Source of the DNA: Candidatus Poribacteria bacterium
GTDB taxonomy: Bacteria; Poribacteria; WGA-4E; WGA-3G
Length of the DNA stretch: 64,000 nt
Direction: 5' to 3'
Assembly: GCA_022827625.1 (NCBI GenBank)
Contig: JAJEIE010000028.1
Span: 29,004 to 93,003, forward strand
The translations under genes and the position numbers were made by a program. The notes under the pieces are model-generated. The model was not told the DNA's origin, searched no databases, and was given only the letters and a program-made list of their open reading frames with translations. Positions within the stretch are counted from its first letter, which is position 1; every line of letters starts with the position of its first letter. Shown one piece after another: positions 41,855 through 41,966 of the stretch.

Positions 41855-41966
41855 AAAAAACAAAAAAGGTATCTACCGGTGAGCATATAGTTTCGGTTCA
41901 CAAGTTACACCGAAAGCTCAACCCAATAGACACCTGTGTCTGATCCCAAACCTCCTTTGGTTTGGG
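41855..41966 (-). promoter_or_regulatory. Candidate ANTAR-responsive antitermination leader of the nirA operon
   Basis: Minus strand 5'->3': P1 CCCAAACC[AAAGGA]GGTTTGGG (41966-41945), P2 AGAC[ACAGGT]GTCT (41941-41928), then arms AGGTGTCTA (41935-41927) / TAGATACCT (41875-41867) followed by TTTTTTGTTTTTT. Both hexaloops have A at position 1 and G at position 4. Confidence 0.8.

What the first reader, a model, noticed from the sequence alone, without database searches (positions are those of the whole stretch)
41855..41966. ANTAR-type dual-hexaloop antitermination leader controlling the nitrite/nitrate reductase operon
Seen directly on the minus strand between the ANTAR gene and nirA: P1 CCCAAACC[AAAGGA]GGTTTGGG and P2 AGAC[ACAGGT]GTCT, both hexaloops with A1 and G4, then a 9-bp stem AGGTGTCTA/TAGATACCT (one G-U) enclosing a second hairpin (TTTCGGT/ACCGAAA) and followed by T6GT6. 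The 5' terminator arm AGGTGTCTA overlaps the P2 loop and 3' stem, so P2 and terminator are mutually exclusive. Established: ANTAR proteins bind tandem hexaloop hairpins with A1/G4 to block terminator formation. Inference: the adjacent ANTAR protein is the trans factor.
Basis: partly seen in the sequence, partly recalled or inferred. Interest (0 to 1): 0.85.

Follow-up and report, generated by a model that had tools for sequence, protein, structure and literature searches.

The report
ANTAR antitermination leader before nitrite reductase
In a sponge-symbiont type bacterium (Candidatus Poribacteria), the RNA in front of the nitrate-assimilation genes carries a conserved on/off switch, two small hairpins overlapping a transcription terminator, that the neighbouring ANTAR protein very probably flips; the switch is of a known kind but sits in a lineage where I found no report of it, and its usual nitrate sensor and phosphorylation site are both missing.

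Summary
The minus-strand leader at 41855-41966 has two A1/G4 hexaloop hairpins (P1, P2), a terminator whose 5' arm overlaps P2, and a U-tract, between a REC-ANTAR gene and nirA-narK-nasA. No dual hexaloop with terminator appeared in 100 shuffled windows. The genome is Candidatus Poribacteria. Leaders from 57 related genomes (genus to order) keep P2 and a terminator; P1, P2 and terminator helices covary; the element and the nirA orthologue co-occur with the ANTAR gene. A second complete leader precedes a porin gene in two species; in family f4 the same leader precedes a NirB-type reductase instead of NirA. The ANTAR protein keeps the RNA-contact residues known from EutV. It is a new member of the ANTAR-target/NasT kind, unreported in this phylum as far as the held papers show.

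Two departures were not in the first report: none of 181 Poribacteria-type relatives has the receiver's phosphoacceptor Asp (Gly/Cys/Asn instead), and none of 60 family genomes encodes a recognisable NasS nitrate sensor. What signals to the protein is open. In 10 of 58 leaders P1 is split by an inserted hairpin, so P1's hexaloop is not universal. No binding or termination was measured.

The parts
42063..42665 (-). REC-ANTAR regulator (NasT-like, 200 aa); receiver lacks the phosphoacceptor Asp (Gly59)
   Evidence: Pfam ANTAR 64.8 bits, Response_reg 31.9 bits; only ANTAR match in the genome; residue tallies
41945..41966 (-). P1 hairpin CCCAAACC[AAAGGA]GGTTTGGG, hexaloop A1/G4 (loop 41958-41953)
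   Evidence: sequence; covariation
41928..41941 (-). P2 hairpin AGAC[ACAGGT]GTCT, hexaloop A1/G4 (loop 41937-41932)
   Evidence: sequence; A1 and G4 invariant in 48 leaders; outer pair G-C/A-U covaries
41867..41935 (-). intrinsic terminator stem; 5' arm (41935-41923) overlaps the P2 loop and 3' stem; encloses an accessory hairpin
   Evidence: fold; covariation
41855..41867 (-). U-tract T6GT6 of the terminator
   Evidence: sequence
40221..41816 (-). nirA-like ferredoxin nitrite reductase, GTG start, first gene of the controlled operon
   Evidence: NIR_SIR 163.7 bits; NCBIfam PRK09566 547.9 bits, below its curated cut-off of 594
38852..40204 (-). narK-family nitrate/nitrite MFS transporter
   Evidence: TIGR00886 312.5 bits, above cut-off
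36626..38734 (-). molybdopterin oxidoreductase, probable assimilatory nitrate reductase NasA
   Evidence: Pfam Molybdopterin 222 bits; best NCBIfam models Fdh-alpha 540.6 and NasC 518.3 bits, both below cut-off; context

Best explanation
The leader is a transcription-attenuation switch for the nirA-narK-nasA operon. By default RNA polymerase reads through P1 and the nascent RNA then folds into the terminator, which contains P2's sequence, and transcription stops at the U-tract before nirA. When the adjacent REC-ANTAR protein is active it binds the A1/G4 hexaloops of P1 and P2, stabilises P2, blocks the terminator and lets the operon be transcribed. Shown: sequence, folds, covariation, synteny, co-occurrence, conserved RNA-contact residues. 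Inferred: binding, termination, antitermination, and induction by nitrate/nitrite or nitrogen starvation. Because the receiver cannot be phosphorylated in the usual way and NasS is not found, activation must use another route (direct ligand binding, an unknown partner, or protein level).
For: Motif present and beyond chance. 57 other leaders found next to the ANTAR gene in related genomes: P2 retained in all, terminator in every one with enough sequence. Covariation: P1+P2 42 cells with both sides changed, terminator 42, 0/500 shuffles each, and slid controls far lower. Terminator loop contents differ widely between species (84-130 nt leaders) while P1/P2 loops hold. Among 60 family genomes, those with an intact ANTAR gene carry a strong model hit (E<1e-6); those without or with a truncated one do not (best E>=2e-4). 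All 51 genomes with the nirA orthologue have ANTAR; all 7 without intact ANTAR lack it, Fisher p 9e-8, not corrected for relatedness. A second complete leader precedes an Alginate_exp porin in G036 and G022. In family f4 the same leader precedes a NirB-type reductase. EutV RNA-contact residues conserved. Methylotenera nasT-nrtA leader has the same layout with P2 loop AAAGGC.
Against: No experiment. P1 is interrupted in 10 of 58 leaders, with loop A1 replaced by G in 4 of them; two canonical leaders have C1 in loop 1. The 3-nt gap between stems is as short as a linker that failed in E. faecalis (PMC3369931), although the A1-to-A1 distance (21 nt, against 24 nt from the residue numbers given there for eutP) is close. 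No sigma-70-like promoter above chance was found near the leader, so its transcription start is unknown.
Confidence: 0.93

Rival explanations
1. The element is only a strong intrinsic terminator for the upstream ANTAR gene, and the operon has its own promoter downstream; the hexaloops are incidental.
For: The terminator is strong and lies just after the ANTAR gene.
Against: A1 and G4 of loop 2 and G4 of loop 1 are invariant in 48 leaders while flanking loop bases vary; P1, which the terminator does not need, covaries; complete leaders also sit in front of a porin gene not preceded by an ANTAR gene; only about 40 nt separate the U-tract from the start codon.
Confidence: 0.04
2. The leader responds to something other than the ANTAR protein, for example an RNA-sensed ligand (riboswitch) or a leader peptide, with P1/P2 as part of it.
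For: In 10 relatives P1's hexaloop is degraded, so ANTAR binding there may be altered.
Against: No Rfam riboswitch match; strict co-occurrence with the ANTAR gene; little sequence conserved outside P1, P2 and the terminator helices.
Confidence: 0.02
3. The ANTAR protein (same switch, different input) is activated by phosphorylation after all, from a kinase using a different acidic residue, as in classical EutW-EutV.
For: The receiver fold scores above Pfam's cut-off and Asp14 of the acidic pocket is kept.
Against: The phosphoacceptor position is Gly/Cys/Asn in 181 of 181 and the switch Lys column is Gly/Asn. Proteobacterial NasT relatives keep the Asp.
Confidence: 0.05

Closest known systems
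NasS-NasT nitrate-assimilation antitermination (Paracoccus denitrificans; PMC3795266, PMC5424462)
   Same: REC-ANTAR protein, encoded next to the nas/nir operon, intergenic leader with hairpins and terminator; the nearest named relatives outside Poribacteria (37-41% identity) include Methylotenera and Kordiimonas nasT-like genes.
   Different: No NasS found in 60 family genomes (control rings); receiver phosphoacceptor Asp absent; different phylum.
EutV-eut dual-hexaloop antiterminator (Enterococcus faecalis; PMC3369931, PMC8934654)
   Same: Two hexaloop hairpins with A1 and G4, P2 overlapping the terminator; RNA-contact residues conserved.
   Different: EutV is activated by EutW phosphorylation of Asp54; here that residue is missing; other target genes.
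NasR-nasF leader (Klebsiella oxytoca; discussed in PMC3369931, PMC7496416)
   Same: ANTAR antitermination of a nitrate-assimilation operon with A1/G4 loops.
   Different: NasR senses nitrate through its own NIT domain; here the N-terminal domain is a receiver.

Membership tests
ANTAR-target RNA (dual hexaloop) | two hairpins of at least 3 bp with 6-nt loops, A at 1 and G at 4 | tested here: met
   window P1 and P2; alignment
ANTAR-target RNA (dual hexaloop) | P2 overlaps the 5' arm of an intrinsic terminator | tested here: met
   fold competition; covariation of both folds
ANTAR-target RNA (dual hexaloop) | short linker between hairpins (5-12 nt in E. faecalis eut leaders) | tested here: inconclusive
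   3 nt between full stems, 7 nt if only 4 bp of each stem are counted
ANTAR-target RNA (dual hexaloop) | co-occurs with an ANTAR protein | tested here: met
ANTAR-target RNA (dual hexaloop) | bound by the ANTAR protein, which causes antitermination | not testable with these tools
   needs a bench assay
NasT (NasS-NasT system) | REC plus C-terminal ANTAR domain | tested here: met
NasT (NasS-NasT system) | encoded beside nitrate/nitrite assimilation genes | tested here: met
NasT (NasS-NasT system) | partner NasS (PF13379) in the genome | tested here: not met
   0 of 60 family genomes; control genomes positive; only weak, mostly partial PF13379 matches (at most 38 bits) in the family
Phosphorylation-activated ANTAR regulator (EutV type) | phosphoacceptor Asp in the receiver | tested here: not met
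   Gly/Cys/Asn in 181 of 181

The most novel reading that the evidence does not exclude
A NasT lineage that has lost both its nitrate-sensor partner and the receiver's phosphoacceptor, so that the degenerate receiver itself (or an unknown partner) senses the nitrogen signal; and in one branch the ANTAR protein works on a leader whose P1 hexaloop has been replaced by an inserted hairpin.
Probability: 0.4. Interest if true: 0.65.

Novelty: new member of a known kind. Interest (0 to 1): 0.45.

Why it matters
It extends ANTAR antitermination of nitrogen genes to Candidatus Poribacteria, known mainly as sponge symbionts, with a set of 58 natural leader variants that separate what is required (P2 loop, terminator exclusion) from what may be dispensable (P1 hexaloop). 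It also offers a natural ANTAR regulator with a non-phosphorylatable receiver and no known sensor, so the question of how a bare receiver-ANTAR protein is switched becomes testable.

Tried and rejected
Rfam at gathering and relaxed thresholds: no ANTAR family match, only chance hits. Searching for a hidden NasS: PF13379 gave only weak, mostly partial matches and a true NasS query gave none. Looking for a conserved neighbour as missing sensor: the upstream gene differs by lineage (a methyltransferase in the window's genus, a short-chain-dehydrogenase-like protein in another genus, an ammonium transporter in f4). Weak model hits (about 20-22 bits) looked at in G034, G007, G047, G032 and G014 show no terminator or lie inside ORFs: chance. 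Promoter scan gave nothing above chance.

Full report
Observation. On the minus strand, between the ANTAR gene (42665-42063) and nirA (start 41816), the leader reads P1 CCCAAACC[AAAGGA]GGTTTGGG (41966-41945), P2 AGAC[ACAGGT]GTCT (41941-41928), a terminator whose 13-bp outer stem AGGTGTCTATTGG/CCGGTAGATACCT begins inside P2 (41935-41867), and T6GT6. The RNA folds into P1 plus terminator at -45.7 kcal/mol, z -6.05. Forcing P2 costs about 11 kcal/mol in the window and 5 to 19 in relatives; when the transcript is cut before the 3' terminator arm, P1 plus a P2-like hairpin is the best fold, usually with one more pair in P2, which shrinks its loop to 4 nt. The pattern with an overlapping terminator occurs once in the window and never in 100 shuffles.

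Protein. The upstream gene is REC plus ANTAR, the only ANTAR match in the 5.0-Mb genome. Against the EutV-RNA structure (PMC8934654), the contact residues R142, K143, K149, E160, Y164, R168, M172, N173, R175 and R177 are identical in the window protein and K147 is Arg; all are nearly invariant in 181 relatives, N173 being Asp in 26. The residue mapping assumes a one-residue offset between chain index and published numbering, which fits all the named residues.

Relatives. Named records place the genome in Candidatus Poribacteria. Related genomes keep the order ANTAR, leader, nirA, narK, nasA. Among 48 leaders with the canonical layout, loop 2 has A1 and G4 in all, loop 1 has G4 in all and A1 in 46 (one of them, L056, has a gapped loop in the alignment and its A1 is uncertain). 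Covariation supports both competing folds: P1/P2 (42 double-changed cells, shuffled mean 12) and terminator (42, shuffled mean 16), 0/500 shuffles each, and slid controls pair far less well. The tool warns that related sequences can exceed shuffles, so the slid control and the independent sites carry weight too.

Co-occurrence and other sites. A covariance model of P1-P2 finds a strong hit in each of the family genomes with an intact ANTAR gene and none in those without it or with a truncated one. The own genome has one site. The nirA orthologue is confined to ANTAR-bearing genomes (Fisher p 9e-8, not phylogenetically corrected). G036 and G022 carry a second complete leader (GTGGAACC[AACGTT]GGTTCCAC, CGAC[AGAGGT]GTC plus terminator in G036) before an Alginate_exp-family porin. 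Family f4 has the same leader before a NirB-type reductase and a second P2-plus-terminator before the ANTAR gene itself, next to an ammonium transporter; in L062 (f3) a P2-plus-terminator also precedes the ANTAR gene, which is followed by an ABC-transporter substrate-binding protein. These suggest autoregulation there; P1 is not clear at those sites.

Departures. The phosphoacceptor position is Gly in 177, Cys in 3 and Asn in 1 of 181 Poribacteria-type proteins, and Asp in all ten ANTAR relatives from other lineages that I aligned, six of them NasT-like. A NasS query (238 bits to PF13379) finds nothing in 60 family genomes and rings in both control genomes, one of them at 33% identity. A very divergent sensor cannot be excluded. 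In 10 of 58 leaders a roughly 24-39-nt insertion with its own hairpin splits the 3' strand of P1 and the old loop decays; on the ANTAR tree this needs at least two changes.

Known background. Dual A1/G4 hexaloops blocking a terminator were established for EutV, with NasR and AmiR targets matching (PMC3369931). NasT binds the nasA leader after release from NasS (PMC3795266), and mutating a leader hairpin abolishes growth on nitrate in Paracoccus (PMC5424462). ANTAR targets are documented in Firmicutes, Proteobacteria and Actinobacteria (PMC8164766). A text search for Poribacteria with ANTAR returned papers whose listed titles concern Antarctica or sponges in general (the ten best of 81 were seen), so absence of a report is not proven.

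Verdict. It is a new member of a known kind, with an unexplained signal input.

Noticed in passing
L007, L014, L022, L024, L026, L027, L029, L031, L034, L035 leaders: An insertion of roughly 24-39 nt with its own hairpin (loop mostly NYGAN) splits the 3' strand of P1; the original hexaloop is degenerate in several.
   Followed up: partly
L146:2485-2533 and L152:2956-3004: A second complete ANTAR-type leader with terminator before an Alginate_exp-family outer-membrane protein, found in two species only, with a remnant of the protein in a third.
   Followed up: yes
L057, L059, L060: The ANTAR leader precedes a 1053-aa NirB-type reductase with a Rieske domain instead of NirA, and a P2-plus-terminator element sits before the ANTAR gene, beside an ammonium transporter gene.
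   Followed up: partly
L062:5190-5238: P2-plus-terminator element upstream of a diverged ANTAR gene that is followed by a branched-chain/urea-type ABC transporter.
   Followed up: partly
L063:4240-4636: ANTAR gene truncated after about 100 residues and joined to the tail of nasA: looks like the scar of a deletion of the whole operon.
   Followed up: partly
L038: nirA and nasA reduced to remnants while the leader and ANTAR gene remain.
   Followed up: no
L028, L036, L042 upstream of the leader: Strong inverted repeats (GTTCA-GGGTGAAC type and TTGC-CAGT...ACTGG-GCAA) between the ANTAR gene and P1 in many relatives, absent from the window; function unknown.
   Followed up: no
window 34931-36601: AAA_35-type ATPase gene converging on nasA, with a similar protein in L150.
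   Followed up: no
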